NCBI GenBank assembly: GCA_029879245.1
Contig: JAOUQQ010000002.1
Location: forward strand, 1-64,000
Source: Chromatiales bacterium
GTDB lineage: Bacteria > Pseudomonadota > Gammaproteobacteria > Thiohalomonadales > Thiohalomonadaceae
Reading direction: 5' to 3'
Length of the DNA: 64,000 nt
The notes under the pieces were generated by a model, which saw nothing but the letters and a program-made list of their open reading frames with translations, was not told the origin of the DNA and ran no database searches. Shown here piece after piece: positions 7,055 to 60,225 of this stretch. Position 1 is the stretch's first letter. The number at the start of each line of letters is the position of its first letter. The translations under genes were made by a program, and so were the position numbers.

Positions 7055-7104
7055 CGACCTCACACCTGTTATCCACATGAATAGTCATTCATTCGGTCAT
7101 ACTC

Positions 7105-7890: not shown

Positions 7891-7907
7891 ATCTTTGTCT
7901 CAAACAT

Positions 7908-7941
7908 AAAAAAGGGGAGTGGCGAGCCACTCCCCCTTTTT
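7908..7941 (-). terminator. Rho-independent terminator of the SCP2-like gene
   Basis: A near-perfect GC-rich palindrome (GGGGAGTGGC at 7914-7923 against GCCACTCCCC at 7926-7935) is flanked by A-runs and T-runs on both sides. Read on the minus strand it follows the SCP2-like gene by about 20 bp and ends in a T-rich run. It is symmetric enough to act in both directions. Confidence 0.85.
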
Positions 7942-7961
7942 AACACATCAGCTATTCGATA

Positions 7962-8357
7962 TCAGGCGCGGCCCATTACCGAGAAGCTCTTGACGAAGGG
8001 ACCGGCCATCCGCGGGTCCTTGATCATCGCACTGTAGTCACCGGTACTAAACTTCAGCTTGCCGGTGGCGTAGGCGGTGCCGAGGCCCATCATACCCACG
8101 CCCTTCGCTGCCCAGCCGCTCCAGTTATCGGCACTGGCGCGCAGATCCCAGTTCAGTGACTCACCATTATAGGCGCCAGCAGTAGTTGCCTTGCCATTTT
8201 CAATCACCAGTACACCGGCAGGTGCATCGTCACCGGCAAAGCCATAACCGATGGTGGAGTTAAAGCCGATCTGCTCCAGCGCACCGGAGAGTTCTGGCTC
8301 AGCATTCCACTGCTCAGCAAAAGATTTCATCCACTCATCAGAAAACATGTCAGCCAT
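7962..8357 (-). CDS. SCP2 sterol-binding-domain-like protein
   Basis: A 131-residue single-domain protein without signal peptide. It has the layout of a small SCP2-like lipid-binding domain: an N-terminal helix (WMKSFAEQWN), a central beta region with LVIENGKATTAG and WDLRASADNW, and a C-terminal half with GKLKFSTGDYSAMIK resembling the SCP2 'G.L...GD......' segment. SCP2 domains bind lipids or hydrophobic ligands in a tunnel; the ligand is unknown here. It is monocistronic, with a terminator downstream and ~110 bp to the next gene upstream. Confidence 0.65.
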   Translation of the reverse strand: MADMFSDEWMKSFAEQWNAEPELSGALEQIGFNSTIGYGFAGDDAPAGVLVIENGKATTAGAYNGESLNWDLRASADNWSGWAAKGVGMMGLGTAYATGKLKFSTGDYSAMIKDPRMAGPFVKSFSVMGRA

Positions 8358-8446
8358 GGTACTTCCCTCACTAGTTGGTTAGTTGTAGATAGATATTGTT
8401 ATTATGAGTCGGACAATATAGTGCGACTTCGGAACCTATGCAAGCA

Positions 8447-8465
8447 GGCTGTTCAGCCAACAGCC
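8447..8465 (-). terminator. Stem-loop just after the outer-membrane protein gene
   Basis: A perfect 7-bp stem (GGCTGTT / AACAGCC) with a 5-nt loop lies 3 bp beyond the stop of the gene ending at 8469. No clear T-run follows on the minus strand, so it may be a weak terminator or an RNA 3'-end stabiliser. Confidence 0.4.
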
Positions 8466-8468
8466 AAA

Positions 8469-11545: not shown

Positions 11546-12426
11546 CTGATCGCCTCCAGCAGGGGGCGCATCGCCTGTCGATTGACGTTCTGGATCTCCA
11601 GCCCGGGGCGGGCGTTAATCTCCAGCAGTACCGGCCCGCTCTTACCGATCGCGATATCGATTCCGAGATACTTCAGCGGCACCGCCTCGGCGATGTGGCG
11701 TGAGTGGCTCAGAATCTCGCTCCAGAACGGCATCTCTACCCCGATAAGTACCGTGCCACTGTCTGGGTGTTTCTCTATCGGTACCCCCTGCAGCATCGCA
11801 TGGGTGCAACGCCCGGACTCCAGTGCGATCCCGAGCCCTACCGCCCCCTGATGCAGGTTGGCCTTGCCGTCCGAGGCGTGCGTCGGCACCCGACTCATCG
11901 CCAGCACCGGCTCGTGCTTAAACAGGATGATCCGTACATCGGCAAGGCCCCGATCATAGAGCCGTTCCATCACCTCATGCTGTACCACCCGCTCCTCGAT
12001 GATCGCCGCATCGTTATTGTCGAACGAGAAGACGCCGAAGATGATGTCGGAGAGGTGGCGCTGTATCGCCTCAAGACTGTAGCGCTTACCGCTGATACCG
12101 AGCCACTCATCACCCTCACGACCAACGATCACTATAATGCCGTTACCGGCACTGCCACTGGCCGGTTTGATCACAAACTCATCAAGCCCTTTCAGGTCCT
12201 CCGCCAGGGTACGCAACTCATAAAAATAGCGGTAGCTATAGTGGGTCTTTGCCAGTGGCACACCCAGCGGTTGCAGGATCTCCTTACAGAGTAATTTGTC
12301 GTTGGCGACAGGAAAATCGCAACGTGCATTGTGTGGGTAGACATAGCCGAGATTGCGTCGGTTCATCGACAGCACATCAGCTGCCGCATCACGTACCTGA
12401 CGCCACTTGTTTAACCAGTCAGGCAT
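11542..12426 (-). CDS. RimK-like ATP-grasp ligase (alpha-L-glutamate ligase-like)
   Basis: The 294-residue protein has the ATP-grasp layout: FVIKPASGSAGNGI (Lys87 and the Gly-rich loop to about 97), EERV in the adenine region, and the metal-binding LLEINARPG (Glu269, Asn271). Such enzymes join a carboxylate, activated as acyl phosphate, to an amine. This subfamily has been called alpha-L-glutamate ligase-like, with the true substrate unproven. No signal or TM is seen, so it acts in the cytoplasm. It overlaps the 7TM-transglutaminase gene upstream by 8 bp and the TPR gene downstream by 4 bp. The pairing with a 7TM-transglutaminase is a recurrent theme of this family. Confidence 0.85.
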   Translation of the reverse strand: MPDWLNKWRQVRDAAADVLSMNRRNLGYVYPHNARCDFPVANDKLLCKEILQPLGVPLAKTHYSYRYFYELRTLAEDLKGLDEFVIKPASGSAGNGIIVIVGREGDEWLGISGKRYSLEAIQRHLSDIIFGVFSFDNNDAAIIEERVVQHEVMERLYDRGLADVRIILFKHEPVLAMSRVPTHASDGKANLHQGAVGLGIALESGRCTHAMLQGVPIEKHPDSGTVLIGVEMPFWSEILSHSRHIAEAVPLKYLGIDIAIGKSGPVLLEINARPGLEIQNVNRQAMRPLLEAIR

Positions 12427-14041
12427 TGCTCACCCCGCTCTGCAGCAGGTGACGGAACCGGTAGTACTCCATCAGCCGCATACCTACCCAGCGGCCGAGC
12501 CACATGTTGAGCGCCATCACCACCAGCAGCAGTTCGGGGAAGGCGAGGAACAGCGACTGCATAAAGAGCGACGACATCACCGCATAGCAGGCGGCGATCA
12601 CCACCGCTGTGGTCGCCATCAGGTGCAGCGCCTTTTTCACCCCCTGCTCCTCGGTGATGATGGCGAAACGCTCTGCGGTGATTGCCAGGATGGCGATGGG
12701 GAAGAGGGTCATCTGCGCCAGCTCGAACAGCCCGAGTTGTACCCCGGTAACGGTCATCATCATCATCACCACTACCACCACCGCCAGGATCACCGCCATC
12801 TTTGGTGAGTGAAGCAGTTGCAACCAGTCGAGCCCTTTACGCACCAGTGCGGTGATGGTGATAATCAGGATAAAACCGATTAACCCCCACACCAATCCCG
12901 TCTCACGCGCCGCCGCGGCGATCAGCGCCGGCAGAAAGGTGCCGAAGGTCTCAATCCCAATCACGTTACGAAATACCACGGTGACGAAGGCGCCCAGGGG
13001 GATCATCAGCAGCACCTTGAGCAGGTCCTGGGAGATCCCCACCCGTTCAAACAGGGTGTAGAAGTTGATCAGGTTGAAGATCGAGTCGCCCAGTGTCTGT
13101 TGTGCCTCGTAGCGTGGGATCAGCCGTTTGGTGGTAGTGAAGCGATATTGAAAATTAACATTACTGCTGTGTTTGAACAGCACCTCATCACCGTAGTAGA
13201 GGGTCAGATAGTTGGCGGGGATCTCGGCGTAATGGTCGTTGATCGTATCAAAGGGAACCCAGTGGCCGTTCACATAGGCCTCCACCCACTGGTGGCTGGT
13301 ACGCTTGCTTCCCCCCTCCATAATAAAACCACCCACCAGGCGCGCCGGAATATTGAGCTTGCGCGCCAGGGCGACGAAGAGACGTCCCTTGCCGTTACAG
13401 CTCGCCTCACCCAGTTTCAGCGCGGTAAGGGCGTCGGTATAGCCGGAGAAGTTGCGATTTTCAAATGCATCCTGCAGGTGACGATGGATGGTGGTCAGAC
13501 TCTCAGCAAGGGTGCGTTCCTGAGTGGCGGGCAGGAGCTGCTCCACCCTCTCGGCGATCAACGGGGAGTCGACCTGAATCCCCTCCTCAACCATCAGATA
13601 GGGCTGCAGCGATGGGGGGTAGTGGGCGGGTATCGATTGCCCTTCGGGCAACTCGTAACGCACCGGCTTACTCTGCACCAGTACCGTGTAACGTACCTCC
13701 TGATGACCCTGGACACCATCGCCCTCCCAGCTGGCGATACGATTCATTCCCTCGCTCTGCAGATTCTGGGTGAAGAGGCCGGTCGCCTGCTGCTCCTCAA
13801 TGATTAACTGGCGCGCATCAGAGCGGGGAAGAAAGGCCTGCATCTGGATGCGATCACCGTGGCCATCCACCTCCATCGCCAGCTCCACCTGATAGCTCTG
13901 CTGCGGGATCAACCCCTTTAACGGGTAATCGAGGAGAAACAGCTTGAAGCCCATCATGCCAAATGGCAAAACCACGAGGAGACCAATGAGTAGCCAATAG
14001 GCCGCTCGGCGTCTTCCACTCTTTTTTTGTTGTTCTGCCAC
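12419..14041 (-). CDS. Transglutaminase-like domain fused to 7 TM helices
   Basis: This 540-residue protein has an N-terminal TM (about 14-33), a periplasmic region ending in a transglutaminase-like fold (about 185-275) and a C-terminal block of about seven TM helices (345-540). The family is usually described as inactive transglutaminase, yet a Cys (215, in ASCNGKGR), a His (250, in SHQWVEAY) and an Asp (265, in PFDTIN) are in the catalytic positions. It may be a peptidase or amidating enzyme acting on the peptide or protein product of the RimK-like ligase encoded next to it. First gene of the four-gene operon; a short AT-rich gap to purL precedes it. Confidence 0.85.
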   Translation of the reverse strand: MAEQQKKSGRRRAAYWLLIGLLVVLPFGMMGFKLFLLDYPLKGLIPQQSYQVELAMEVDGHGDRIQMQAFLPRSDARQLIIEEQQATGLFTQNLQSEGMNRIASWEGDGVQGHQEVRYTVLVQSKPVRYELPEGQSIPAHYPPSLQPYLMVEEGIQVDSPLIAERVEQLLPATQERTLAESLTTIHRHLQDAFENRNFSGYTDALTALKLGEASCNGKGRLFVALARKLNIPARLVGGFIMEGGSKRTSHQWVEAYVNGHWVPFDTINDHYAEIPANYLTLYYGDEVLFKHSSNVNFQYRFTTTKRLIPRYEAQQTLGDSIFNLINFYTLFERVGISQDLLKVLLMIPLGAFVTVVFRNVIGIETFGTFLPALIAAAARETGLVWGLIGFILIITITALVRKGLDWLQLLHSPKMAVILAVVVVVMMMMTVTGVQLGLFELAQMTLFPIAILAITAERFAIITEEQGVKKALHLMATTAVVIAACYAVMSSLFMQSLFLAFPELLLVVMALNMWLGRWVGMRLMEYYRFRHLLQSGVSNA

Positions 14042-14162
14042 GGAGTCACCATCCAGGTGCTAAAGGTGGCGCGATCTTATCTCCATGAACCTTAAAAAAA
14101 CATTAAATGGCACACACTAATCAAGGCCATTCGACGGGCGGTAGCGAGACGGCTGCAAGCTG

Positions 14163-17100
14163 CTACCCGACGAAAAGCCGCGCATTGCGGAACATGCGCA
14201 TCCACGGGCCGTCCTCTGCCCACTCATCGGGGCACCAGGAGTGCTGCACCGCGCGGAATACCCGCTCGGGGTGGGGCATCATGATGGTAAAGCGGCCATC
14301 GGTAGTGGTCAGGCCGGTGATCCCCAGTGGTGAGCCGTTGGGATTGGCCGGATAGAGCTCGGTGGGGTCGCCGTAGTTGTCGACATAGCGCAGCGCGGCA
14401 AGGTGTTTACGCAACACCTCGCTCGGCTCGTGACCTTCACGGAACTCGGCACGCCCCTCGCCGTGGGCCACGGCGATCGGCATCTTCGAGCCCTCCATCC
14501 CGGCAAGGAAAATGGAGGGTGACTTCAGCACCTCGACCATCGAGACACGCGCCTCGAACTGCTCGGAGTTGTTGCGCACGAAGTGGGGCCACGCCTCGGC
14601 ACCGGTGATCAGGTCGTGCAGGTTGGACATCATCTGGCAGCCGTTGCAGACACCGAGGCCGAAGGCGTCTTCACGGGTGAAGAAGGCCTCGAACTCGTCG
14701 CGGGCGCGCGGGTTGAAGAGGATCGACTTGGCCCACCCCTCACCGGCACCGAGCACGTCACCGTAGGAGAAGCCGCCGCAGGCGACCAGTCCGTGGAAAT
14801 CCTTGAGCGAGACGCGCCCGGCGATGACATCGCTCATGTGCACGTCGACCGCGTTGAAGCCGGCGCGGTCGAAGGCGGCGGCCATCTCGATCTGGCCGTT
14901 GACCCCCTGTTCGCGCAGCACCGCCATGCGCGGCCGCACACCCCTGTTGATGAAGGGGGCGGCGACATCCTCGTCGATGTTGTAGCTCAGGGTTGCGCTC
15001 ATGCCCGGGTCGTTGGCGTCGAGCAGGCGGTCGTACTCCTCTCTCGCACACTCGGGGTTGTCGCGCAGGGACTGCATCTGGTGGGTGGTGGCGGACCAGG
15101 CACGCTGCAGCTCGATGCGCGACTCATCAAACAGGGTGCGCCCCTCGCGCTTTATCACAATGCGGTCATCGTCGTTAAGCGAGCCGATTACGAAACTGTG
15201 GTGGCCCAGCTCGTACTCGCGCAGCAAGGAGAGCACCTCTTCGGTGTCCTGATGGTGCACCTGGATCACCGCCCCCAGCTCCTCGCTGAAGAGCGCGGCG
15301 ATCACATCGCCGTCCAGCTCATCCATCTCGATCTCGACACCGGTATGACCGGCAAAGGCCATCTCCGCCACGGTGGTGAAGAGGCCGCCGTCGGCACGGT
15401 CGTGGTAGGCGATGATCTTGTGCTCGGCACTCAAGTTCTGAATCGCGGCGAAGAAGTTCTTCAGCATCTGCGCATCGTCCACGTCGGGGGCGCGGTGCCC
15501 CACCTCGCCGAAGACCTGGGTAAGGCAGGAGCCGCCGAGACGGTTCTGCCCCTTGCCCAGGTCGATGAGGATCAGATCGGAATCACCCCTGTCGCTACGC
15601 AGCTGCGGGGTGAGGGTCTTGCGTACATCGGAGACCGGGGCGAAGGCGGAGATGATGAGGGAGAGCGGCGCGGTAACCGACTTATCTTCACCGTCGTTCC
15701 ACACCGTCTTCATCGACATGGAGTCCTTGCCCACCGGGATGGAGATCCCCAGTTGCGGGCAGAGTTCCATCCCCACCGCCTTCACCGCCTCGTAGAGGCC
15801 GGCATCCTCGCCCGGGTGACCCGCCGGGGCCATCCAGTTGGCGGACAGCACGATATCCTCGATTTGGTCGACCTTGGCCGCGGCAAGGTTGGTGAGCGCC
15901 TCACCCACCGCCATTCGAGCCGAGGCGGCGTGATCGACCAGCGCCACCGGGGTGCGCTCGCCCATCGCCATCGCCTCGCCGGTATAGCCGGAGTAGGTGG
16001 AGGCGGTAACGGCGCAGTCGGCCACCGGCACCTGCCACGGACCGACCATCTGGTCGCGGTTGACCAGGCCGGTGACGCTGCGATCACCGATGGTGATGAG
16101 GAAGGTCTTGTCGGCGATGGTCGGCAGCCGCATCAGGCGGTAGGCGGCCTCCCGGATCTCGACCTTGCGGGTATCGAATTCACGCTTCTGGAACGGCTTG
16201 TGCTGCACCTCGCGCAGCATCTTCGGCGGCTTGCCCAGCAGCACCTCCATCGGCATGTCGATGGGACTGTTGTCGAAGTGGCCATCGCCCAGCACCAGTT
16301 GCTGCTCTTTGGTCGCCTCGCCGATCACCGCGAAGGGTGCACGTTCACGCTCGCAGATGGCGGCAAAGCGCTCCATGTCCTCCGGTTTGATCGCCATCAC
16401 GTAGCGCTCCTGCGACTCGTTGCACCAGATCTCCATCGGCGCCATACCCGGCTCGTCGTTGGGGATGGCACGCAGCTCAAAGCGGCCGCCACGCCCGGCG
16501 TCGTTGACCAGTTCGGGCATGGCGTTGGAGAGGCCACCGGCGCCGACGTCATGAATGGAGACAATCGGATTCGCCTCACCCAGCTGCCAGCAGCGGTCGA
16601 TCACCTCCTGGCAGCGGCGCTCCATCTCCGGGTTGCCGCGCTGTACCGAGGCGAAGTCGAGACTTTCCGCCGACTGCCCCGAGGCCATCGAGGAGGCGGC
16701 GCCGCCGCCCAGGCCGATCAGCATCGCCGGTCCACCGAGCACCACCAGCTGGGCGCCGGGCGGGATGACATCTTTTTCCACGTGGTCGACACGGATGTTA
16801 CCGAGGCCTCCGGCGAGCATGATCGGCTTGTGGTAGCCACGCACCTCATCGCCGTTGGGGCCCGGCACCTTCTCCTCGTAGGTACGGAAGTAGCCGTTGA
16901 TCGCCGGGCGGCCAAATTCATTATTGAACGCGGCACCGCCGAGGGGACCGTCGATCATAATATCGAGGGCCGAGACGATGCGCCCCGGCTTGCCGTAGTC
17001 GACCTCCCACGGCTGCTCGAAGCCGGGGATCTTGAGGTTGGAGACGGAGAAACCGGTGAGGCCCGCCTTGGGCTTGGAGCCGCGACCGGTCGCCCCCTCG

Positions 17101-18059
17101 TCGCGGATCTCACCTCCGGAGCCGGTGGCGGCACCGGGGAAGGGGGAGATGGCGGTGGGGTGGTTGTGGGTCTCCACCTTCATCAGGATCGCCATCTCCT
17201 CCTGGTTATAGCCATATTCCGCGGAGCCGGGTGCGGGGAAGAAGCGCCCCGCCTGGGGGCCTGAAATCACCGCAGAGTTATCTTTATAGACTGAGAGGGT
17301 CTTGCCCGGATTCTGCTGGTGGGTGTTGCGGATCATGGCGAACAGCGACTTCTCCTGCTCCTGGCCGTCGATGATCCAGTCGGCGTTAAAGATCTTGTGA
17401 CGGCAGTGCTCCGAGTTGGCCTGGGCGAACATCATCAGCTCGGCGTCGGAGGGATTGCGCCCCAGCGCGGTGAAGTTCTCCACCAGATAGTCGATCTCAT
17501 CAGAGGCCAGGGCCAGGCCCCACTCGCTGTTGGCACGCTCCAGCTCCGCCTTGCCGCCGCCCAGCACATCCACGGTGCGCAGCTCGGCGGGCTCGTGACT
17601 GGCGAACAACCCCGCCGCATCCTCCACGCTATCAAGCACCTGCTCGATCATGCGGTCGTGGATCAGGGCGGCGAGCTGGGCACGGCCCTGCTCGGAAAGT
17701 GCGGCGCCGTTCTCGCCCGTGGCATACCAGGCAACACCGCGCTCCAGCCGTTTGATCCCGGTAAGGCCGCAGTTGTGGGCGATATCGGTCGCCTTGGAGG
17801 CCCAGGGTGAGATGGTGCCGATGCGCGGGATCACCAGCAGCAGGGTGCCCTCGGGCTCCTCGGACTTCACACTCGGTCCATAGGTGAGGATCTGCGAGAG
17901 CACCGTCTGTTCGTCACTGCTGAGTTCACTGTCGCACTCGGCAAAGTGGAGATACTCGGCATAGAGATGCTTCACCTCGGGGGCGCCATCAGCGGCGCGC
18001 GCCATCAGCTTGTCGAGGCGGAAGGGGGAGAGGGCGGGGCTACCACGCAGAACCAGCAT
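14163..18059 (-). CDS. purL: Phosphoribosylformylglycinamidine synthase (single-chain)
   Basis: The 1298-residue protein is the large gammaproteobacterial PurL. It contains an N-terminal adapter, a helical linker, two AIRS-type ATP-binding halves ([20 protein letters not shown] and later KDSMSMKT) and a C-terminal class I glutaminase with [12 protein letters not shown] (nucleophile Cys) and HPERVFRA. It converts FGAR, glutamine and ATP to FGAM in purine synthesis. It starts 156 bp from the divergent SIMPL gene and is monocistronic. Long open frames on the opposite strand are codon-bias shadows. Confidence 0.98.
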
Positions 18060-18215
18060 CGCTATCGGCCTTTAGTATAAGGTAATCGAGAATCGGCGAT
18101 TTTACTGGAAGCGGCGCACAACATAAACCGTATCTGCAGGTCACCGAGGCTGGCCATCTCCACCCCAGCCCCCTATCATCGTAACCCTGCACGCCATCAG
18201 GAGAGGAGAAAAGGA

Positions 18216-26252: not shown

Positions 26253-26287
26253 AAGGCCCACCTCACTGGTGGGCCTTCTCTTTTTAG
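26253..26287 (+). terminator. Rho-independent terminator after tRNA-Asp
   Basis: A perfect 10-bp stem AAGGCCCACC / GGTGGGCCTT with loop TCACT is followed by CTCTTTTT, 5 bp after the tRNA. It also lies 13 bp beyond the minus-strand gene ending at 26300. Confidence 0.9.
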
Positions 26288-26299
26288 GCAAAGATCACG

Positions 26300-27127
26300 T
26301 CACTCAGCACCAAGCCGGATACGCCAGGGGTTATTTCTCGCACTCTCTATCACCGCCTTCTGGCCATCGCTCAACTTCGGCTTAGCGCACCGATACATCG
26401 ACATAAGATTCCGCACCGGTGGCCGAAACTCAATACCATTGACCTGTACAGCTCCGCCGCAACGCGACTGTTCCTGAATGCAGTGCACGCCTGGGTCAGC
26501 TGGTGTATCAGCCACATCGTCCCAGTTGGCCGCAGTGAGTCCGGCAGTGTCCCCATCGGCGTTCTCTAACCGCACCGCCTCACAGGCAATACCACTGGAG
26601 GTATGAGCCAAGCCAAAATAGTGCCCCAGACTATGTGCCAACAGATCTCCGTCCGGGCAACACTTACTCTCACAACGACCATTCTCACCTGAATCAGCCT
26701 TACGACAGCTATTCACCCATGATGGCATACTGATGTAGTTGGTCTGTCCCGGACCCCAGCTCCACGCAGTTTGACCATGACTACGAAAGAAGACTGGGAC
26801 ATGCGTCGCTGGTTGCAGCGATACCAGATAGTTACCAATGATGTTGTAGTACTCCCACGCACGATTATCGTTGTCCGCAGGTATCGAGTTTAATAACGTC
26901 GATTTAACCGTGATAAAGTCTCTCTCCTCATCAAAGGTGAATTCATACCCCGTCCCACTCCAACTTGAATTGGCGTACCGCACCCAATCACTCACCTCCT
27001 GCTTGCTGATTGTTGCGCGGTTTCTGCCATCATCATCAGATAACTGTACAGCGATAATCGGTACTTTTGTCGAGCAGCCTACCAGTATCAGTAACGATAC
27101 ACCTAATATTCCGTTTATCTTTTTCAT
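26300..27127 (-). CDS. Metzincin-like lipoprotein with degenerate active site
   Basis: A ~275-residue lipoprotein (lipobox LVGC, Cys near residue 18) starting at 27127, where an AGGAGCAGG ribosome site precedes the ATG. It contains HSLGHYFGLAH, exactly the HExxHxxGxxH zinc-binding pattern of metzincins except that the catalytic Glu is Ser, and a possible Met-turn (RNLMSMYRC) ~85 residues later, as in pappalysin-like peptidases. Many Cys pairs suggest disulfides and export. It may bind zinc without cleaving, or be a decayed protease. It is the last gene of the 35.4-26.3 kb operon. Confidence 0.75.
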   Translation of the reverse strand: MKKINGILGVSLLILVGCSTKVPIIAVQLSDDDGRNRATISKQEVSDWVRYANSSWSGTGYEFTFDEERDFITVKSTLLNSIPADNDNRAWEYYNIIGNYLVSLQPATHVPVFFRSHGQTAWSWGPGQTNYISMPSWVNSCRKADSGENGRCESKCCPDGDLLAHSLGHYFGLAHTSSGIACEAVRLENADGDTAGLTAANWDDVADTPADPGVHCIQEQSRCGGAVQVNGIEFRPPVRNLMSMYRCAKPKLSDGQKAVIESARNNPWRIRLGAE

Positions 27128-27170
27128 ACCTGCTCCTGATTTGGTATACAACCAGCTAATACAACAGTTG

Positions 27171-27851
27171 CTAATCTGTGTTCATGTCATATATGACATG
27201 GATCTGTCCATCCTTCGCATCAATGACGGATGAAAACCGATTCAGCGTACCGTCCTCATTTCTGATTGAATACTCGGCCAGATAACCGGCGACAGTCTGT
27301 TGCGCAACAATTACAGGGGTTTCGTGAATAATAAAATTCACCGCACGGCCATATCGCTGTTTTACGAATTCTCGAAATTTGTCATGCATCTCGGCCCACT
27401 GCCGCCCATCACGTGTCGGAGGTTCGGGCAGCATCGCAGGGTCTCGCAGCTCGGCCCGGACGCCGCGTAACTCTCCACTGTCAGCATCAAAACTCCCGTA
27501 CTGAACTCCGTCAATAATACGAGCCCCCATGTGCTGTTGATGCAACACGACAACAATATGCCGCTGACCGTTAGGCAGTGTTATTCCACTTTCTCCCCAA
27601 CTCTTAAATTCCAGTGCCTCCTCCGCTATCGCCTTTCCACCCAACTTGCCACGTTTCTGTTTCATGGTATCTGCAAGCACTCTAGCCCTGGCCTCAGGGT
27701 TCAAAGCCTTCTCCATGGCAATATTGCCCTCATCCATAATGGTCATCTGGTGTTGTGAATCCACCACATCAACTGGTACCGAAGAACAACCGGCCAGCAG
27801 CAGAGACAAACAGAGCAACACAATACCACTATGAATTTTTATAGTTACCAT
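27171..27851 (-). CDS. Lipoprotein, unknown function
   Basis: The ~226-residue product begins at 27851 (AAGGAAAGAG upstream) with a signal and lipobox LLLAGC. An upstream in-frame start would add 23 non-signal residues and was not used. The mature part is alpha/beta, with PNGQRHIVVVLHQQHMGAR in the centre and a C-terminal YSIRNEDGTLNRFSSV stretch. No family recognised. The start lies 19 bp beyond the stop of the 1387-residue gene and 43 bp precede the next gene, so it belongs to the operon. Confidence 0.7.
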   Translation of the reverse strand: MVTIKIHSGIVLLCLSLLLAGCSSVPVDVVDSQHQMTIMDEGNIAMEKALNPEARARVLADTMKQKRGKLGGKAIAEEALEFKSWGESGITLPNGQRHIVVVLHQQHMGARIIDGVQYGSFDADSGELRGVRAELRDPAMLPEPPTRDGRQWAEMHDKFREFVKQRYGRAVNFIIHETPVIVAQQTVAGYLAEYSIRNEDGTLNRFSSVIDAKDGQIHVIYDMNTD

Positions 27852-27870
27852 ATCTACTCTTTCCTTATAT

Positions 27871-30800
27871 CTACTTTGGTGGTCCCATGATGATGGAGGG
27901 GGTGACGGTAAAGTGAACATCTATCTCCACGGCTTCCGCATACACCAGCCGTGACCCAGTGCTGTGATGACTCTGCTGCTCATACTCCTCATACTCTGAC
28001 ACCAGCAAGCGGTACTTTCCCTTAGGTCGTGATGATGGTATTCCTATACTGGCCGATAAAGTCACCACGCCGTCATTAACCTGGCCCCTGCCTGCCGCCA
28101 ACTCTGCAGACGCCGATAGAAAGGACGTTGAAGTTGTTTTCCAGCAGAGATCAGTATCTGCGATCTCTTCATTTCGCTCCTGAACACTCAGTGCAATGAT
28201 GTTCTTCGGATGCGAACCGGCTGCATTTACCGCAATCGGCATCACACCGGTCACATAGGCAGTCGCCCGATTATCCGTATCGCTAACATCGACCCACAGG
28301 TAACGCTCTGGAAGCAGCTGGATAAATTCACCGTACACCAGTGACGACATCTCAGCATAACGCACACTATCTGCCTGATAACGGCACAGTGCCAATTTAA
28401 TGAAGGGAAAATAGGCACTCTTCTCCGTCATCTCGATATCGGCATACCACAACTTTTTCTCACCATCCCACTGCACATCATAGGTAACGATCTTGTGCGG
28501 CCCATCTGAAGGCTTGAACCTGCCAAGATTATTATCTGCTGACTCTGTCGTAAAATAGAGTTCCTCGACTAATGCACGATACCCCTTAAACGCACTATCA
28601 CGCGGCCATAGCCCTATTGGTTTTTTTGTTTTCCAGATCGGATCCTGCGCCCATGATGAGCCTGAACTCCGTCCCTTTTCTCCACGATCCGCTTTTGCCT
28701 GCAGCCCGTAAGGGGGGATTACAACTCCTAACTGCTCGCCCCTGCCGCTAACAAACCAGGCGCCACGCAAATAGACGCGTATCCCCGTGAGACGGCGGCT
28801 TCGCCGACTCTCCTTCACGCGCTCCCAGCGAAATATCGGCATCATGTAGGCGATCTCTGGTGCGGGTGGTGGCGTTGAGCTGGGCAGTTTGATGGCATCA
28901 CTAAGCGGGCCGGTTCTCATAAACTGCTGCTCCACCTCCGCATCCCAGGCAGTTTTCCCTCCCATACGGGCCGGCAGAAAGTATTCACGAAAGCGTGTTG
29001 CGGCCGTCACCTGAAAACGGACGTCCCGTGCACGGGTATCAGGGAAGTGAATTCCGATAGCATTGTGTGTGACGATGCCCGCATCGACGATCTCATTCAA
29101 CTGGTACTTTTCCAGTAGCTGACGCGTCATTTCGTCGTGTTTATTGGGTAGGCTAAACGCAAAACTGAGCTTTTCACTATCCATCAAGCGTTTTATTCCA
29201 ATAAAAACAGCCCCATACTGGGCATCATAAGGTAGATATGTACCATGACCTGATGGATTTCCTGTCAGCAGCGCTTGCGGCATTACTGGCATCTCAACCA
29301 CCGGAACCTTCACCTGCACCTCACGATAGCCCAGTTCACTGTCCGGGGCCTGTTCCAAATCCGTCCAGGTTGCCGTTATTGAGAGATTACCTGTGCTATT
29401 ACCATGGATCTCTACCGCCGCCGTCAGCTCGGCTATAGTCTCACCGGCAAATCTGGTCATCGTACCGGTCAAACCCGGTGCACTTAACGGGATAATTACC
29501 GGTTCTGCCAGCGGACGTGCAACCGCATGGACTATCTTCAGTGGCCGATCCGGTGTCAACATCCAGTTACCACCATTGGCTGCAGCATCGCTTATTGCCG
29601 GTAGCACCTCGTTACTAATATTCACCCCATCAATGTCGGCCGCGACAGTATTCGCCACTTCATGTGTCCACTGCCAGATACCCATCAGTTCAAGATTCTG
29701 CACTGCAATCAATGAGCTATAACGTAATGTGACTTCCTCCGCCTCGGCTAACGCGATCGTTATCTCATTTCCATTGCTACTGATACCCGACGAACCTGGT
29801 ACCAAACGCAGACGCAAGGCGGCAACATCAGGCCAGTTCTGTTCGGCAAACTCAAATACCTGCGGAAATTCACTGCCGGGAATACCGTCCAGTGAAATAC
29901 CCGCAGCCAGAGGATCGGCAATATAGTTGACTCGCCATGTCTCTTTTGGGGGGTGTTCTGATGGTGGCAACTCCTTTTCCCGTGCCAGGTAATCCGATGC
30001 AATACTCATCCCCGCCAAAACACCGTTTTTCACCACATCAAACTTACCGTGGGTTACGGCCAACCCCAATGACACGGCAGGCGGTGCCAGGTGCCGGACG
30101 CACAGTGTGGTATTGTGTTTTCCCTTCTTGGCGCCGGAACGAATCACCATCACCTCTGACGACTCACCTGGTGATGCTGGCTGCCATCCAGCTTTCAGTG
30201 GCTCCTGAATAGCGAGATTTTTGTCGCTAATAATCACCGGTGACGCTACCGGCTGAAACCGCGCATACCGCATCTCTTCTGTGGCATGCATTGTGTAGCT
30301 CGCATCCACAGACGGCTCAGGACTGTTGCCTGCAAGGTCAACCATCCTGCCACGGAACCGATACCGATGACCAAAGCGCAACATCGGCATTGGTGTGACA
30401 GGTTCGATGGTGGTCTTCAGGCGAAATCCCGCACCACTCCAGTTCTTATCCAACGTATTCGTCGGCTGCCCGGGCTCCGGTACACATAGTGCCCAACCAT
30501 TCCAGTTAAACAGACCCTCATGGATAAAGTGCTCACTCCCGGATGGTGAACCCATAAGGGCGGTCACAACCATCCCCTCAGACTCCTCATGGCGATCAGC
30601 GCGTTTACTTCCCTTTAATGTATCGAAATGATATTCCACCTGTCGGTGACAAAGTGAACGCCACTGCGGTGTATGGCCCGGCACATCAAGATCCAGCACA
30701 TCAATGCGAGTCCCGCGCATTACATCCTCGGCACTCAGCTTTGTCTCACTATTGATCGAATTTGACAACTTCTGTGACCTCTTTCTACGCTCAGTCACAT

Positions 30801-32034
30801 TGCTACTACGACCGCTCTCTAGCACAGAGAAACCAGCAGATCTCATCGCAGCTAACCCTGATCGACTCTCCTGTGCATCGACCAGCGACTCCATTAAACT
30901 CAACTCCTTCAGGGCTGCACCATCAGTATCAATCTGAGTCAGATCATAGCGCTGAGTGTCATCAAACGGCAGCAATCCATCTATCATGGAAGAGGATGCA
31001 CAAATAAATCCAGCTTCAGAGAGCGTGTATTGGGTCCAGGGAAAGATATTGCGCTTGCTATATCCGCCATCGAGGCTATTCAAATCTCCCAATTGTGGAT
31101 TGCTTAACCTGATCTGCCCTCCCGGGGCAGAGAAATCCGGTGGTAGATTGAACTCAAGATCAATAACAAGCCCCAGCCAGCGCAACAGATCGGGATACTG
31201 GCGAGCAACGGAGATGATAGTGTGCAGATCAAACAACGGAGCAGATCGATTAATACCGGTTGCCCCTGCCTCCGCGTCTAAACTACTCCCCTCTTTTTGT
31301 CTATGGTGATAATTCGACAACGCACCGAGGCCTGCAGGATCCTGCTCACCCCCACCAAAATCCGGTCTGCCTATCTTCTCCAGCAGGCGTGAGTAATCTT
31401 TTCGCTTGCCCGGTGCAGAGCTTGCTCTGACTGTCGCTTCAGCAGCCCCTCCCTTAATCTTTTTGCGCCTTTCCATGAGTTTCTCTTCCACTTTCTGCGG
31501 GTGCCGGTCATGTCTTTTGGCGCTACTCTTAGAATCTGCCGCCTTGCCCTTTCCATCCATAGTCGCTTTTTTGCCAGATAGACGCTCCTGTACGGTCTTC
31601 ATGCGCTCTCTCTTCGGGCGCTTCGCCCCACCCAGCAGCGACATCGTACCGTAGCGGTGTTTCAGGTAGCGGGCGACAGGTGATGCTGGATAAGATGTCA
31701 GAGCGAGCTCCGCGGTGGTCTTGTAGGCCTGTAGTGGCGTACCATCCGGTATTAATGCACTCCACACCTTTGGATCCATCACTCGCTTCACCACCAGCCC
31801 CTTGCCGATGCGTTTTACCAGTCCACCCGGTGATTTGTATTCCAGATCAAAATCACTCAACAAGCCCTCAAGTGTAACCGGCCAGTTGGCGAACTCGGGA
31901 AATGCCAGGTTTAGAGCAGTGGAGTCGTTCGTACCAGGATCCAGCTTCGGCGAAAGAGCAATCGATACTCTTAGTTTACTTCCCCGTCTTCCGGCAGGGA
32001 GTACTGTCCAGATGATCTCCTGTAACTTGCTCAT
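27871..32034 (-). CDS. Very large protein of unknown function (1387 aa)
   Basis: No signal peptide or TM is evident; the N-terminus reads IIWTVLPAGRRGSKLRVSIALSP. A basic, low-complexity linker at about 137-222 (many Lys/Arg, KRERMKTVQERLSGKK) separates an N-terminal module from a long beta-rich body. A DLAGN motif at Asp566 is the hallmark found in Ig-like or fibronectin-like folds. The C-terminal ~300 residues include GIRVYLRGAWFVSGRGEQLG and FIQLLPERYLWVDV. It overlaps the 1113-residue gene upstream by 4 bp (ATGA), so the two must work together. It could be co-exported with the Tat substrate. No function can be assigned. Confidence 0.85.
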   Translation of the reverse strand: MSKLQEIIWTVLPAGRRGSKLRVSIALSPKLDPGTNDSTALNLAFPEFANWPVTLEGLLSDFDLEYKSPGGLVKRIGKGLVVKRVMDPKVWSALIPDGTPLQAYKTTAELALTSYPASPVARYLKHRYGTMSLLGGAKRPKRERMKTVQERLSGKKATMDGKGKAADSKSSAKRHDRHPQKVEEKLMERRKKIKGGAAEATVRASSAPGKRKDYSRLLEKIGRPDFGGGEQDPAGLGALSNYHHRQKEGSSLDAEAGATGINRSAPLFDLHTIISVARQYPDLLRWLGLVIDLEFNLPPDFSAPGGQIRLSNPQLGDLNSLDGGYSKRNIFPWTQYTLSEAGFICASSSMIDGLLPFDDTQRYDLTQIDTDGAALKELSLMESLVDAQESRSGLAAMRSAGFSVLESGRSSNVTERRKRSQKLSNSINSETKLSAEDVMRGTRIDVLDLDVPGHTPQWRSLCHRQVEYHFDTLKGSKRADRHEESEGMVVTALMGSPSGSEHFIHEGLFNWNGWALCVPEPGQPTNTLDKNWSGAGFRLKTTIEPVTPMPMLRFGHRYRFRGRMVDLAGNSPEPSVDASYTMHATEEMRYARFQPVASPVIISDKNLAIQEPLKAGWQPASPGESSEVMVIRSGAKKGKHNTTLCVRHLAPPAVSLGLAVTHGKFDVVKNGVLAGMSIASDYLAREKELPPSEHPPKETWRVNYIADPLAAGISLDGIPGSEFPQVFEFAEQNWPDVAALRLRLVPGSSGISSNGNEITIALAEAEEVTLRYSSLIAVQNLELMGIWQWTHEVANTVAADIDGVNISNEVLPAISDAAANGGNWMLTPDRPLKIVHAVARPLAEPVIIPLSAPGLTGTMTRFAGETIAELTAAVEIHGNSTGNLSITATWTDLEQAPDSELGYREVQVKVPVVEMPVMPQALLTGNPSGHGTYLPYDAQYGAVFIGIKRLMDSEKLSFAFSLPNKHDEMTRQLLEKYQLNEIVDAGIVTHNAIGIHFPDTRARDVRFQVTAATRFREYFLPARMGGKTAWDAEVEQQFMRTGPLSDAIKLPSSTPPPAPEIAYMMPIFRWERVKESRRSRRLTGIRVYLRGAWFVSGRGEQLGVVIPPYGLQAKADRGEKGRSSGSSWAQDPIWKTKKPIGLWPRDSAFKGYRALVEELYFTTESADNNLGRFKPSDGPHKIVTYDVQWDGEKKLWYADIEMTEKSAYFPFIKLALCRYQADSVRYAEMSSLVYGEFIQLLPERYLWVDVSDTDNRATAYVTGVMPIAVNAAGSHPKNIIALSVQERNEEIADTDLCWKTTSTSFLSASAELAAGRGQVNDGVVTLSASIGIPSSRPKGKYRLLVSEYEEYEQQSHHSTGSRLVYAEAVEIDVHFTVTPSIIMGPPK

Positions 32035-35000
32035 GCCAGCACCCTGTCATCTACACAGCTATAGGCTGCGCAATAGTGATCCCAGTAACCACGGCCATCG
32101 GAGAGCAGCGTATCAGTCCGTCGATCACGCATGATGTCGCCCGCGGTATTTTGTTCCTGCTTCTCCATGCCATCCAGTGTCACCGCATAGGTCAAAGCCA
32201 CATCCTTGCTGAAGCACAGCACATCCACTTCAACAATCAGCGTCCCACTGCCGGTAAGACTATTGTTCGACTCCTGATAGGTTAACGTGAGTGTAAAGTT
32301 TACACTGACGCAAATTATCTCCAGCACCTCCAGCGAACCGCCGCACTTGGCATAACCCGCCACGGTCAGCTCCCCCCCCTCCTTACGCAGGTAGGCGCCA
32401 AACATGATGTACGCCTTACCCTGAGCAACAACCAGATCAATCGCCAGATTCCCACCCGCCTCGAGACTAGCCTCCAGCATGTTGACACCAATATTGGTAT
32501 CCAGTCTCACACCGACAAATCCACCACCGGCAATACCGTAGATCGTTACTCTGAATGGGTTATCGCGTGTAGAGAAGGCCAGATCAAGCGCCAGCGGGTC
32601 ACCATTAAAGGGCAAATTCGCCGCCGCACTAAAACCAACATTCTCCAGCAAGAAGGCACCGCTATTAATTTCCGGCAACTGCATAGTGTAGCCGACCCTC
32701 GCACCGGCTGAGGTGATGTCGAGAATCGGCGGATCGCTAAATCCATTGGGAGGGATGTATTGCTGCAGGGTTTGAATAAATTTCAGTGGCCCAAGAAACT
32801 CAATTGATACATCACTAACATCAAAGTCCGGCTTTTCAGCTCCTCGCGCACTGAATACTATGCCACCGAACATCACCTTTACCGCTCCCAATATATTGAT
32901 GCCAAAATTTGTCAGCTTGCCTCTGGTGACTACATCCGGTGCACGACTGCTATCGAGGAACAGTACATTGCGACAATCCAGCTCCAGCCTGCTCTTTTTG
33001 CCATTAGGGTTGGCGATGAAGGTGCCCTGATTCTTCTTAAAGGAAGTCGTCTCCCACTCCATTAGTGTTGTGATGACCGGTTTGCCATCCACCGTGCCGC
33101 GAGTGCTGTGCAGGGTTGGTAGTGCTCGCGAGCTGCCCGAGAATGGTGACTCCAGACCGGTAGCATCAAGCACGTCCTTCAGCGTCAGACCGCCTACCAG
33201 TTTTGCAAGCTCAACGTTACTGAAGAGGTGCTCAAAATAGTCCTGTGGAATTATCCCCTTTGCAAACTCTGACATCGTTTCAGGGTCACCACCGATCGCA
33301 CCAAAATTGCGCGACAGGCCCGAGATCAGCATATTCGGTGAGATAACACCACCTGAGTTGGCCCCGGGGATCTTTAACTGCAATCCATCGTTATAGGCCT
33401 GGGCAAACACTTCCCCTATGTTTCGTTTCTCACCGGTGGTCTCAAAGCCATGTGAGATATAGCTGTCATGATGCTTAACCTTCAGATACTCCTGCTGACC
33501 AGTCATCTTCGATGCTGCATCCATCAGCACATCTGCAAACTCCAGCCGCGGCAGAATCGGACGATACTCCAGACTGGAGCCTTCACCGCCCACCCCCTTC
33601 TGGATACCAAATTTTAATGTACGGGCAGAAAAGGTTGTACGCGCCAACTTGGAGCTACTCTCCTTGTCCGATCCGGCAAAACAAAATTTCTGGTTGTCAC
33701 CCCTTATCTTCAGCTCCGTCAGATCCGATATTTTCTGCTCAAGATTGGCACGATCTGCATCATCCTCTGCACTAAAATAGCTTCCCAGAGTTGCCAGCGG
33801 CACAAATGCCATTGATGCAGGGAGCATTAGCTCATTCCCTGCCAGATCAATCGCACGTATATTAAATATTTTTGCGCTCTCTCCCTGCCTGATCAGTTTT
33901 ACATTTGAACCGCCGCTGTCGATCTCAAAGCGGTTTTCACCGGATAGCGCTACGTATCTGAGTGGATTGAGCCGCTCCTGCTGCGGGCCTGAAAACTGGT
34001 AATGGATCTCCCGCTCCACGATGGTCAGAGTTACCGTTTGTTCAAGAGCCGCCACCAGCCCCATCGCAGACACCCTTGGTTTACGCTCAACAATCTTCGT
34101 CAGCACCGCCCTGAATCCAAAAGGTACCAGCCAGCCTTTTTCAACGATCTTGACATAGTGATCCCGTCCCATAATTGAGCGATGATCCCAGAGTGTTATA
34201 CCCGCAGGTCTTGCGCTCTCCTCAAAATCCCATCGACCATTCAGATCCATCCATGCACCCAGTGAGCTTAATACAAACTCCTTTGCCCATACCGGCCGGG
34301 TCTCCTCCCAGCTCAAATAGCTGCTCTGCCACACCAACTGATTGCGGTCCCCAGGATTCAACGGCGTACATACTTTGCTCGTTTCGCACTCCCGGTTATC
34401 TTCATCGTTTGATGACGGCTTCCCCTCCTTTGTACGCAGATCCGGGGACCACACGGCACGCACAGCACTGGCATCCCCACTCTCAAGCACCGTGTAACTA
34501 TTCCCCGCCCGCACTCTTGTGCCCAACCTGGCATGCCACAGTTCATGCCACTTACCACTTCCCTTTGTCGGCGATGGCAACCAACCCGCCCCAGAGACCG
34601 GTGAGAGAATCAGACGATGTGGTGCCTCAATAGCCGTATACCTGGCCCCATCAAACTCGCTTGCAGGATCCTGCGGATTTGGCCGTAGGAGTGACATATC
34701 AACAGCAACAGGAGATCGCATCCTAAACTTCTCTGACGCTATGTACCGGGCACCAGATGATGAACCAGCCCACCTTGTCTCCGCGCCATGCGCCTCTTTA
34801 ATAAATGAGGAGAACATTGAACGCAGCCAGTTAGGCTGTGGTGGTTGCAAATAGGCCTGCTCGTGCCCGCCGGGTGGTTGTGCTACCGGCACCACACGCA
34901 ACGGCCAGCGTGACCAGCTCATCAGACCGTTCAGGGTGAAGGGTATTGCCGCCTTATCGGCAACGGGAATCTCGAAGACAAGATAGGAAGAGCCGGAGAT

Positions 35001-35372
35001 CCATGCACTTGCCGGGGCCTTGATATGCTCATCCTCTGGGTAGGCCACCTCGGTAATGTGCTGTGGCGGCAACTGCACCGTAATATAGCCCGACTTTGTA
35101 TTGTTAATGCGCTGAAGGGTCTTACCATCCTGACTTAAACGGAGGTTACTGAAGCTGAACGTCATGTTCAGGAGATTATCTGGAAGTACCACGTTGATGG
35201 ATGGCGCAACACCCTGATAGTTGCCCTGCTGCATCGCACTCTGTGCAGCATTGGTGATGGCCTTATTTATATCTTTCGCTACATCCGCTACCCCGGAACT
35301 ACGCGCAGAACCCGAGACTGTACCCAGAGACAGTGCGGAGAGTAATTGTAGAAATAGACGTCTGCTAATCAT
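32031..35372 (-). CDS. Large Tat-type secreted protein of unknown function (1113 aa)
   Basis: The N-terminus SRRLFLQLLSALSLGTVSG fits a twin-arginine signal (S-R-R-x-F-L) with a hydrophobic core and AxA-like end, suggesting export of a folded or cofactor-containing protein. The body is beta-rich: a GWLVPFGFRAVLTKIVERK stretch around 411-429, a DLAGN motif at Asp509, and a Gly- and beta-rich C-terminal ~200 residues (GYAKCGGSLEVLEIICVS, GSGTLIVEVDVLCFSKD) that could form a beta-solenoid or barrel-like assembly. First gene of the operon. Both this and the 1387-residue protein carry DLAGN, hinting at related domains. Function unknown. Confidence 0.85.
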   Translation of the reverse strand: MISRRLFLQLLSALSLGTVSGSARSSGVADVAKDINKAITNAAQSAMQQGNYQGVAPSINVVLPDNLLNMTFSFSNLRLSQDGKTLQRINNTKSGYITVQLPPQHITEVAYPEDEHIKAPASAWISGSSYLVFEIPVADKAAIPFTLNGLMSWSRWPLRVVPVAQPPGGHEQAYLQPPQPNWLRSMFSSFIKEAHGAETRWAGSSSGARYIASEKFRMRSPVAVDMSLLRPNPQDPASEFDGARYTAIEAPHRLILSPVSGAGWLPSPTKGSGKWHELWHARLGTRVRAGNSYTVLESGDASAVRAVWSPDLRTKEGKPSSNDEDNRECETSKVCTPLNPGDRNQLVWQSSYLSWEETRPVWAKEFVLSSLGAWMDLNGRWDFEESARPAGITLWDHRSIMGRDHYVKIVEKGWLVPFGFRAVLTKIVERKPRVSAMGLVAALEQTVTLTIVEREIHYQFSGPQQERLNPLRYVALSGENRFEIDSGGSNVKLIRQGESAKIFNIRAIDLAGNELMLPASMAFVPLATLGSYFSAEDDADRANLEQKISDLTELKIRGDNQKFCFAGSDKESSSKLARTTFSARTLKFGIQKGVGGEGSSLEYRPILPRLEFADVLMDAASKMTGQQEYLKVKHHDSYISHGFETTGEKRNIGEVFAQAYNDGLQLKIPGANSGGVISPNMLISGLSRNFGAIGGDPETMSEFAKGIIPQDYFEHLFSNVELAKLVGGLTLKDVLDATGLESPFSGSSRALPTLHSTRGTVDGKPVITTLMEWETTSFKKNQGTFIANPNGKKSRLELDCRNVLFLDSSRAPDVVTRGKLTNFGINILGAVKVMFGGIVFSARGAEKPDFDVSDVSIEFLGPLKFIQTLQQYIPPNGFSDPPILDITSAGARVGYTMQLPEINSGAFLLENVGFSAAANLPFNGDPLALDLAFSTRDNPFRVTIYGIAGGGFVGVRLDTNIGVNMLEASLEAGGNLAIDLVVAQGKAYIMFGAYLRKEGGELTVAGYAKCGGSLEVLEIICVSVNFTLTLTYQESNNSLTGSGTLIVEVDVLCFSKDVALTYAVTLDGMEKQEQNTAGDIMRDRRTDTLLSDGRGYWDHYCAAYSCVDDRVLA

Positions 35373-35832: not shown

Positions 35833-36930
35833 ATGCCGCAACAAAAACCCCTGGTACTCATTGTCGACGATAACGAGACCAACGTTAAACTCGTCGAACA
35901 GTTTCTGATGCATGATGGGCGTTACGACTACCTCTCCACCACCAACCCGACCGCCGTGATGGAGATCTGCCGCAACACACCTGTCGACATGGTGCTGCTC
36001 GACATCATGATGCCTGAGATGGATGGCTATCAGGTCTGTGCCCAGCTTAAGGCGCAGCACGCGACACGTGATATTCCTGTTATCTTTCTCACTGCCAAGC
36101 ACGACATGGAGAGCATCATTAAGGGCTTTAACACAGGGGGTGTCGACTATCTGATCAAACCGATCAATGGTATGGAGTTGATGGCCCGCATGACGACCCA
36201 CCTCAACCTGCGCCGTCAGGAGCAGGAGCTACGGGCACTGAATGCCACCAAGGATCGCTTCATCGCCATTATTGCCGAGGACCTGCGCTCGCCCATCACC
36301 GGGTTACGCGGAGTACTGCAGATGTTGGCCAGCAAGTTCGATACCCTGAGCACGGATCAAATTCACGATTATATCGATATGGCACACCTGGCCGCTGACA
36401 GCCTCGACAGCCTGGCCGAAAATCTCATTCAGTGGTCGGCTATAAATGATGGTAATCCGCCGTTATCTCTTCATCAGCTGGATCTGCACGCCCTCTTCTC
36501 CTCCGCTATCCAGAGGGTACGGGCAGAGAATCTACAGAAGGAGATCGTTTTCGAGCTCGATATTACTGAGGGCAGTTTTGCCTATGCCGATGAGAATGCC
36601 CTGATGCTGGTGGCACTTAACCTGCTGCGTAACGCCGTCGCCTTCAGCCACCATGGTGGCCAGGTCTACATTGGCGCCGAGGAGTCAGAGGGGCGATGGC
36701 AGATCCGCATCGATGATCAGGGGATAGGTATTGCACCGGAGGAGCAGGAGAAACTGTTCCGACTTGATACACGCTTTACCCGTGTCGGCACCAGTGGCGA
36801 GAAGGGGAGCGGCATGGGGCTGCTGCTCTGCCAGGAGATCATGCAGCGCATCGGCGGCACCATCTCACTGGAGAGCCAGCCCGACAAGGGCACACACCTC
36901 AAGCTCTCGCTGCCCAGCCGAGTCTCTTAG
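35833..36930 (+). CDS. Receiver/histidine-kinase-like protein lacking the phospho-acceptor His
   Basis: The 365-residue protein has an intact CheY-like receiver (Asp57 in LLDIMMP, Asp12-13, Lys109 in LIKP), then a dimerisation segment RFIAIIAEDLRSPITGL where the usual H-D-L-R-x-P carries Glu149 instead of His. It ends in a HATPase domain with NLLRNAV, DDQGIGI and GSGMGLLLC. ATP-binding motifs look intact, so it may bind ATP but cannot autophosphorylate by the standard route. It likely acts as a regulator controlled by phosphorylation of its receiver. The DUF4388-receiver gene follows after 20 bp. No TM segments. Confidence 0.88.
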   Translation: MPQQKPLVLIVDDNETNVKLVEQFLMHDGRYDYLSTTNPTAVMEICRNTPVDMVLLDIMMPEMDGYQVCAQLKAQHATRDIPVIFLTAKHDMESIIKGFNTGGVDYLIKPINGMELMARMTTHLNLRRQEQELRALNATKDRFIAIIAEDLRSPITGLRGVLQMLASKFDTLSTDQIHDYIDMAHLAADSLDSLAENLIQWSAINDGNPPLSLHQLDLHALFSSAIQRVRAENLQKEIVFELDITEGSFAYADENALMLVALNLLRNAVAFSHHGGQVYIGAEESEGRWQIRIDDQGIGIAPEEQEKLFRLDTRFTRVGTSGEKGSGMGLLLCQEIMQRIGGTISLESQPDKGTHLKLSLPSRVS

Positions 36931-36950
36931 GGAGAACCGGGGCAGCGGTT

Positions 36951-37697
36951 ATGAAATACAAAAAGACGCTAGGTGAATTTATTGAGGCGATGGCGGAGCT
37001 GGTCGAACACAGGGCCAGCGGCCATGTGGTGTTAATTACCGATAAGGGCGACTGGGGCAAGATCCTGCTGCGCAAGGGGGCTATCTACTCCGTCAGTCTG
37101 GGTGATTTTCGTGGACAGCAGGTGCTCAACTATCTCAAGCCGATGCCCGAAATTCAGTATATGTTCCGCCCCGAAAAGGAGGGAGAGAGCGCCCGTCCTA
37201 CATCGGCCGGCTCAGCCAGTATGGACAACGAGCGCTTCTTTAACTTTTTTGACCATGTGTTACCGAAGAGCATGAATCCAGCTCCCGCTTCTCAACATAG
37301 CGACAGTGTTACTGGTCAGAGCGGACGTAAGTCGGTTCTGGTGGTCGATGACAGCGCACTGGCCCGCAAGGTGGTCACCAATCTGCTTAGCGCCAAAGGG
37401 TATCAGGTGTATGAGGCCAAGGATGGCTTTGAGGCACTTGGCCAGCTGGAGCTCACTCGGCCCAATCTGGTGATCCTCGACCTCATCATGCCGAAGGTGG
37501 ATGGCTATGAGGTGATAGAGAGGATGAAGAGCAATCCGGCACAGAAGAACATCCCGGTCATTATGCTCACCTCACGCGACAGCCTGATGGATAAACTCAA
37601 GGGCAAGATGAGCGCCACGGACGCCTACATCACCAAGCCGGTCAAAGAGGATGAGTTGCTGACCACTATCTCAAAACTGATGGCAAAGAGCGCCTAA
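36951..37697 (+). CDS. DUF4388 (PATAN-like) plus receiver protein
   Basis: The 248-residue protein has an N-terminal DUF4388-type domain (residues 1-75, with KGAIYSVSLGDFRG), a Ser/Pro-rich linker and a C-terminal receiver (about 127-245) with Asp133-Asp134, phospho-Asp177 in LILDLIMPKVDGYE-like context, Thr207 and Lys229. All receiver residues for phosphorylation are present. DUF4388/PATAN receivers are linked to signalling in motility and c-di-GMP contexts in some bacteria. It ends 4 bp into the convergent tauE gene. Confidence 0.88.
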   Translation: MKYKKTLGEFIEAMAELVEHRASGHVVLITDKGDWGKILLRKGAIYSVSLGDFRGQQVLNYLKPMPEIQYMFRPEKEGESARPTSAGSASMDNERFFNFFDHVLPKSMNPAPASQHSDSVTGQSGRKSVLVVDDSALARKVVTNLLSAKGYQVYEAKDGFEALGQLELTRPNLVILDLIMPKVDGYEVIERMKSNPAQKNIPVIMLTSRDSLMDKLKGKMSATDAYITKPVKEDELLTTISKLMAKSA

Positions 37698-60190: not shown

Positions 60191-60225
60191 CGAGACATAA
60201 GGTCTCGTTAATATAACTGTCAGCT

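What the first reader, a model, noticed from the sequence alone, without database searches (positions are those of the whole stretch)
26300..35372. Four-gene operon with two giant proteins of unknown function
Seen: 1113-aa and 1387-aa genes overlap by 4 bp and are followed by two lipoproteins, one with a degenerate zinc-peptidase motif, all on one strand with short gaps. Both giants carry a DLAGN motif typical of Ig-like folds, and the first has a Tat-type signal. None of the four can be assigned a role. Inference: an exported or surface-attached assembly whose parts are co-produced, with the signal-less 1387-aa protein possibly co-exported. This is the strongest candidate for an undescribed system in the window.
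Basis: partly seen in the sequence, partly recalled or inferred. Interest (0 to 1): 0.75.

Follow-up and report, generated by a model that had tools for sequence, protein, structure and literature searches.

The report
Giant Tat-exported protein pair, undescribed
Two very large neighbouring bacterial genes, matching no known family, turn out to be an inseparable pair scattered across about nine phyla, and several lines of evidence suggest that in many of these bacteria their products leave the cell together, already folded, through the Tat export channel.

Summary
In detail: a four-gene minus-strand operon, A (1113 aa), B (1387 aa, 4-bp overlap) and lipoproteins C and D. A and B match nothing in Pfam, NCBIfam, PADLOC, PHROGs or (by sequence) the PDB. 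They are an obligate pair: in 70 loci from about nine phyla A lies directly 5' of B (gap -4 to 44 bp in 54 of 55 measured), and their divergence is tightly correlated (r=0.98; 0.86 in 18 divergent loci). The distribution is patchy and phylum-crossing, so horizontal transfer is likely. New here: in the deeper lineages A carries a Tat signal while B shows none; in five loci from two phyla a TatA gene sits just after B. Exported proteases of unrelated families recur beside Tat-type pairs. In the window, C and D are split halves of a metallopeptidase precursor, fused in the nearest relative; D lost its catalytic Glu (HSLGH for HELGH). Best reading: a ~275-kDa (up to ~575-kDa) A-B complex folds inside, is co-exported through Tat, and works in the envelope or outside with a peptidase-like partner. 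Its activity is unknown, and a large clade of relatives lacks any signal.

The parts
32031..35372 (-). Gene A: 1113-aa giant protein (121 kDa); N-terminal Tat signal, beta-rich body, C-terminal long antiparallel beta-meander
   Evidence: no family match
35289..35372 (-). Tat-type signal of A (MISRRLFLQLLSALSLGTVSGSARSSGV)
   Evidence: sequence; motif scan
27871..32034 (-). Gene B: 1387-aa giant protein (153 kDa) without signal; string of Ig-like domains; 4-bp overlap with A
   Evidence: no family match
27171..27851 (-). Gene C: lipoprotein (226 aa from ATG 27851, LAGC lipobox), homologous to the middle, propeptide-like part of the G052 metallopeptidase precursor
26300..27127 (-). Gene D: lipoprotein (275 aa from ATG 27127, LVGC lipobox), metzincin-like catalytic domain with HSxxHxxGxxH (catalytic Glu replaced by Ser): probable pseudopeptidase
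26602..26637 (-). Zinc-site motif HSLGHYFGLAH of D (approximate span)
33834..33848 (-). DLAGN motif in A (residues 509-513)
30325..30339 (-). DLAGN motif in B (residues 566-570), conserved through the B family (VDLAGNS)
26253..26277 (.). Hairpin between the 3' ends of the operon and the convergent DUF2238 gene; T-rich tail only on the + side

Best explanation
A and B are the two subunits of one giant complex. Both are made from one message (adjacency and 4-bp overlap are shown; co-transcription follows from them). They fold and bind each other in the cytoplasm, and B, which has no signal, is carried through the Tat translocase by A's Tat signal, the known 'hitchhiker' route for folded heteromers (inferred; the comparative evidence is strong). 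In several relatives the operon brings its own TatA, presumably to help pass so large a cargo (gene shown, role inferred). Outside the cytoplasm the complex works with an exported peptidase or, in this genome, with a membrane-anchored pair derived from one: C (propeptide-like) and D (metzincin-like, without its catalytic Glu), which most likely act as a binding or anchoring module rather than as a protease (inferred). The likely use is an envelope or cell-surface machine for dealing with other cells or their macromolecules, built of many Ig-like domains (B) and a long beta-sheet domain (A); this last step is a guess.
For: A lies directly 5' of B, same strand, in 70 loci with both; gaps -4 to 44 bp in 54 of 55 loci measured, the exception being a locus where A is broken (L008). 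A and B distances correlate at r=0.978 over 53 loci and 0.864 over 18 divergent ones, 0 of 2000 permutations as high. Tat signals on A in window, G052, Streptomyces L004, two Lentzea, R. phaseoli, and all eight members of the deepest clade. No signal-like N-terminus on B (hydrophobicity scan only). TatA directly after B in Sinorhizobium (L011), Ensifer (L014), G411 (L026, after an M35 peptidase gene) and Lentzea fradiae (L073), all over the Pfam cut-off, and in L. jiangxiensis (L076) by a session-made HMM. The window genome has TatC and TatA/B-type genes. Exported proteases next to Tat-type pairs: astacin with 4-bp overlap (L010), trypsin-like with 4-bp overlap (L024), M35 (L026, L012), matrixin (L014), metzincin (window, G052). 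C and D align to successive parts of one G052 protein, E 2e-14 and 1e-36. B model: Ig-like string; A model: long beta-meander.
Against: No physical A-B contact was tested. The large crown clade (38 of 59 tree rows) and some others lack any signal on A, so the function may be cytoplasmic there. TatA is found in only 5 loci and not in the window. A cargo of 275 to 575 kDa would be very large for Tat. Structure models are of modest confidence (pLDDT 64 and 68; pTM about 0.5). Proteases are absent beside most pairs.
Confidence: 0.55

Rival explanations
1. Secreted antagonism complex: A-B is a two-component protein weapon or carrier, with the neighbouring proteases and lipases as activators or payloads.
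For: Patchy, phylum-crossing spread; carriage on conjugative plasmids; neighbours of many unrelated hydrolase types, including trypsin, astacin, M35, matrixin, papain-like, Zn-dependent phospholipase C, patatin; A relatives of the crown clade carry a long coiled-coil segment.
Against: No immunity-like gene was seen to recur; no toxin or pore-forming family matches; most pairs have no hydrolase beside them; lipase neighbours are few and may be chance.
Confidence: 0.2
2. Protease trap or inhibitor, working like alpha-2-macroglobulin: B's chain of Ig-like domains binds proteases, whose genes therefore sit nearby.
For: Best PDB fold matches of B include A2M, complement C3/C5 and bacterial A2M; proteases recur beside the pair.
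Against: TM-scores are about 0.1 with rmsd near 50 A, and antibodies and cytokine receptors match nearly as well, so the match says only 'string of Ig-like domains'; no C(G/L/V)EQ thioester in any of 77 B proteins; no Pfam A2M domain.
Confidence: 0.07
3. The core function is cytoplasmic; Tat signals and TatA were added in some lineages.
For: The most abundant clade has no signal on A or B; the tree root is unknown.
Against: Tat signals occur in several deep lineages outside the crown, in two phyla; the dedicated TatA genes argue for selection on export.
Confidence: 0.18

Closest known systems
Tat 'hitchhiker' heteromers (Rodrigue et al. 1999, as cited in PMC6708511; E. coli hydrogenase 2 from general knowledge)
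   Same: One subunit with a Tat signal, adjacent partner without one, Tat genes present in the genome
   Different: Not a cofactor enzyme by any family match; far larger; dedicated TatA in some operons; complex formation not shown
TatA paralogues beyond the housekeeping set (two TatA in Campylobacter jejuni, PMC4148689; functional diversity of TatA types, PMC5777986)
   Same: Extra TatA-type protein besides the housekeeping set
   Different: Here it is encoded in the operon of one giant substrate pair, on plasmids and chromosomes of two phyla
Metzincin peptidases (M43/reprolysin-like)
   Same: D has the HxxxHxxGxxH zinc ligands; C and D match successive parts of one precursor in G052
   Different: Split into two lipoproteins; catalytic Glu replaced by Ser; all Pfam scores below the gathering cut-off
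Alpha-2-macroglobulin / complement C3
   Same: Long string of Ig-like domains in the B model
   Different: No thioester, no Pfam domain, no meaningful TM-score

Membership tests
Tat hitchhiker complex | one subunit with a twin-arginine signal | tested here: met
   A: SRRLFLQLLSALSLG in window; also in relatives
Tat hitchhiker complex | partner subunit without export signal, made from the same operon | tested here: met
   B lacks a signal by sequence and hydrophobicity scan; 4-bp overlap with A
Tat hitchhiker complex | Tat translocase in the genome | tested here: met
   TatC and TatA/B-type genes on contig 51
Tat hitchhiker complex | subunits bind before export and the partner's export depends on the signal of the first | not testable with these tools
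   needs an experiment; co-inheritance r=0.86-0.98 is indirect
Alpha-2-macroglobulin (gene B) | Pfam macroglobulin domains | tested here: not met
Alpha-2-macroglobulin (gene B) | thioester CxEQ motif (absent in some true members) | tested here: not met
   0 of 77 B proteins
Metzincin metallopeptidase (gene D) | HExxHxxGxxH/D with catalytic Glu | tested here: not met
   HSLGHYFGLAH in D; HELGHYFGLAH in G052
Metzincin metallopeptidase (gene D) | homology over the catalytic domain | tested here: met
   32% over 270 aa to the G052 protein; Pfam hits below cut-off
Known anti-phage defence proteins | match to PADLOC models | tested here: not met
Phage proteins | match to PHROGs or presence in viral contigs/phage records | tested here: not met

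The most novel reading that the evidence does not exclude
A-B is the founder of a new class of giant extracytoplasmic protein machines that are assembled in the cytoplasm and exported whole through Tat, some with their own TatA, and that are paired with interchangeable exported peptidases; it would include exceptionally large Tat cargo (275 to 575 kDa).
Probability: 0.35. Interest if true: 0.85.

Novelty: new variant of a known kind. Interest (0 to 1): 0.62.

Why it matters
A widespread, apparently horizontally moving gene pair has no family in the main databases. If the pair is exported as a folded complex of 275 to 575 kDa, it would test the upper size limit of Tat and the role of TatA in adapting to its cargo, and it would define a new kind of bacterial surface or secreted assembly.

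Tried and rejected
Single-protein scans of genome contigs and viral contigs with the window proteins found nothing; a sub-alignment of B relatives worked. No viral or phage relatives. A neighbour tally over 52 genes beside mostly crown-clade pairs showed no family recurring in more than 3 members, so those pairs stand alone in unrelated surroundings. An early clustering of greedily called ORFs suggested a recurrent opposite-strand giant gene; judged an artefact of long antisense ORFs in G+C-rich DNA and replaced by codon-usage-based calling. PDB hits of the A profile were coiled-coil matches only, from an insert that the window protein seems to lack. Foldseek hits of A to porins and LptD (E about 1e-4, TM about 0.1-0.3) were not taken as evidence of an outer-membrane barrel; viral-library hits gave nothing specific. 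A link of A's C-terminal domain to DUF6603, recalled from memory, was not supported: no such Pfam hit at E<=1 in eight A proteins. The SIR2-like neighbour in L081 was not pursued. Literature searches found no description of the pair in the held library, which is weak evidence.

Full report
Observation. The minus-strand operon is as described: A 32031-35372 (1113 aa), B 27871-32034 (1387 aa), C and D behind them. The A/B overlap is 4 bp. C and D are lipoproteins; reading the DNA, their likely starts are ATG 27851 (LAGC) and ATG 27127 (LVGC), shorter than the longest ORFs. A starts with SRRLFLQ plus a hydrophobic stretch. DLAGN is in both giants. The operon is flanked by a convergent DUF2238 gene and, divergently, by a sensor kinase and a response regulator.

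No known family. A and B give nothing significant in Pfam, NCBIfam, PADLOC or PHROGs. Of seven A relatives scanned against Pfam, five give nothing and two give only sub-threshold hits. Sequence search of the PDB gives none for B and only coiled-coil matches for an insert in A relatives.

The pair is the conserved unit. tblastn of plasmids found A and B side by side in Cupriavidus, Diaphorobacter, Rhizobium, Streptomyces and others. A scan of one genome per species with a sub-alignment of B found 54 further loci whose record titles name Pseudomonadota, Bacillota, Acidobacteriota, Actinomycetota, Bacteroidota, Chlorobiota, Verrucomicrobiota, Nitrospirota and Armatimonadota members. In the 70 loci that hold both, A precedes B on the same strand; the gap is -4 to 44 bp in 54 of 55 measured. 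Loci with only one are at contig or fetch edges or look like remnants (L014, L094, L095). Whole-genome searches show rarity: 2 of 144 relatives counting the window's own genome, 5 of 398 in the phylum, 2 of 385 and 2 of 369 in two classes; none of the 19 same-genus or same-family genomes searched has A. The A C-terminal tree mixes phyla (Bradyrhizobium with Acidobacteriaceae, Holophagaceae with Pelomonas). Horizontal transfer is the simple reading; some metagenome bins may be misassigned. A and B distances are strongly correlated.

Export. A motif scan and reading of N-termini show Tat signals on A in the window, G052 (RRRQLLK), Streptomyces L004, two Lentzea, R. phaseoli, and all eight of the deepest clade after fetching missing upstream DNA. 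B has none by a simple scan. The 38-row crown clade, two Streptomyces (L007, L009) and a few others have no signal. A TatA gene of about 50-60 codons follows B in Sinorhizobium, Ensifer, G411 and two Lentzea; Pfam TatA_B_E is over its cut-off in the four tested. The window genome has its own TatC and TatA/B-type genes elsewhere. The step from these facts to co-export of a bound A-B complex is inference from the known hitchhiker route (Rodrigue 1999, as cited in PMC6708511).

Accessory peptidases. Beside Tat-type pairs there are astacin, trypsin-like, M35 (two loci), matrixin and metzincin genes; those read in full begin with signal-like stretches, and two overlap B by 4 bp. In G052 a 726-aa protein with a lipoprotein-like start holds, in order, a C-like segment (residues 253-417) and a D-like segment (465-723). 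So C and D are its split halves. C is called propeptide-like from its position only; it has no Pfam match. D lacks the catalytic Glu.

Structure. AlphaFold2 models from 36-row alignments are of modest confidence: A pLDDT 64, B (residues 195-1387) 68. B is a series of beta-sandwiches; fold hits are Ig-like strings of many kinds. A ends in a run of long antiparallel strands; hits are porins, LptD and similar at low TM-score. These support 'beta-rich, extracellular-looking' and no more.

Conclusion. An undescribed, obligate, apparently mobile gene pair, probably an exported heteromer in the lineages with Tat signals including this one, with peptidase-derived partners here. What it does is open. 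Novelty is given as a new variant because Tat hitchhiker complexes are a known kind of exported complex; the two families themselves are undescribed in the libraries searched.

Noticed in passing
window 8469-14041 (-): Four-gene operon: 7TM-transglutaminase-like, sugar-transfer-associated ATP-grasp, TPR protein and a possible outer-membrane beta-barrel.
   Followed up: no
window 35833-37697 (+): Hybrid sensor kinase and response regulator genes diverge from the A-B-C-D operon; possible regulators.
   Followed up: no
L015 (G052) 5049-18125: The nearest relative's locus also holds a papain-like peptidase, an uncharacterised secreted protein of outer-membrane appearance, and downstream a protein with SGG-type repeats like those of trimeric adhesin heads (the last by eye).
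   Followed up: partly
L009 8095-12987: B of Streptomyces nigrescens carries an insert that looks like a peptidoglycan-binding domain (alignment, by eye).
   Followed up: no
L075, L081: A begins with a transthyretin-like domain (L081, sub-threshold); the Bacteroidales and Chlorobiota copies are nearly identical, so recent transfer or a binning error.
   Followed up: no
L081 11365-12468: A SIR2-like gene lies 16 bp after B in the Chlorobiota locus.
   Followed up: no
L042 1106-4879: Two extra A-like fragments lie upstream of the intact pair in Achromobacter pulmonis.
   Followed up: no
L013: The Agrobacterium vitis pair lies beside dpdE and dpdF; B seems split in two.
   Followed up: no
window 60001-62000: G+C falls to 0.447, lowest in the window.
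   Followed up: no
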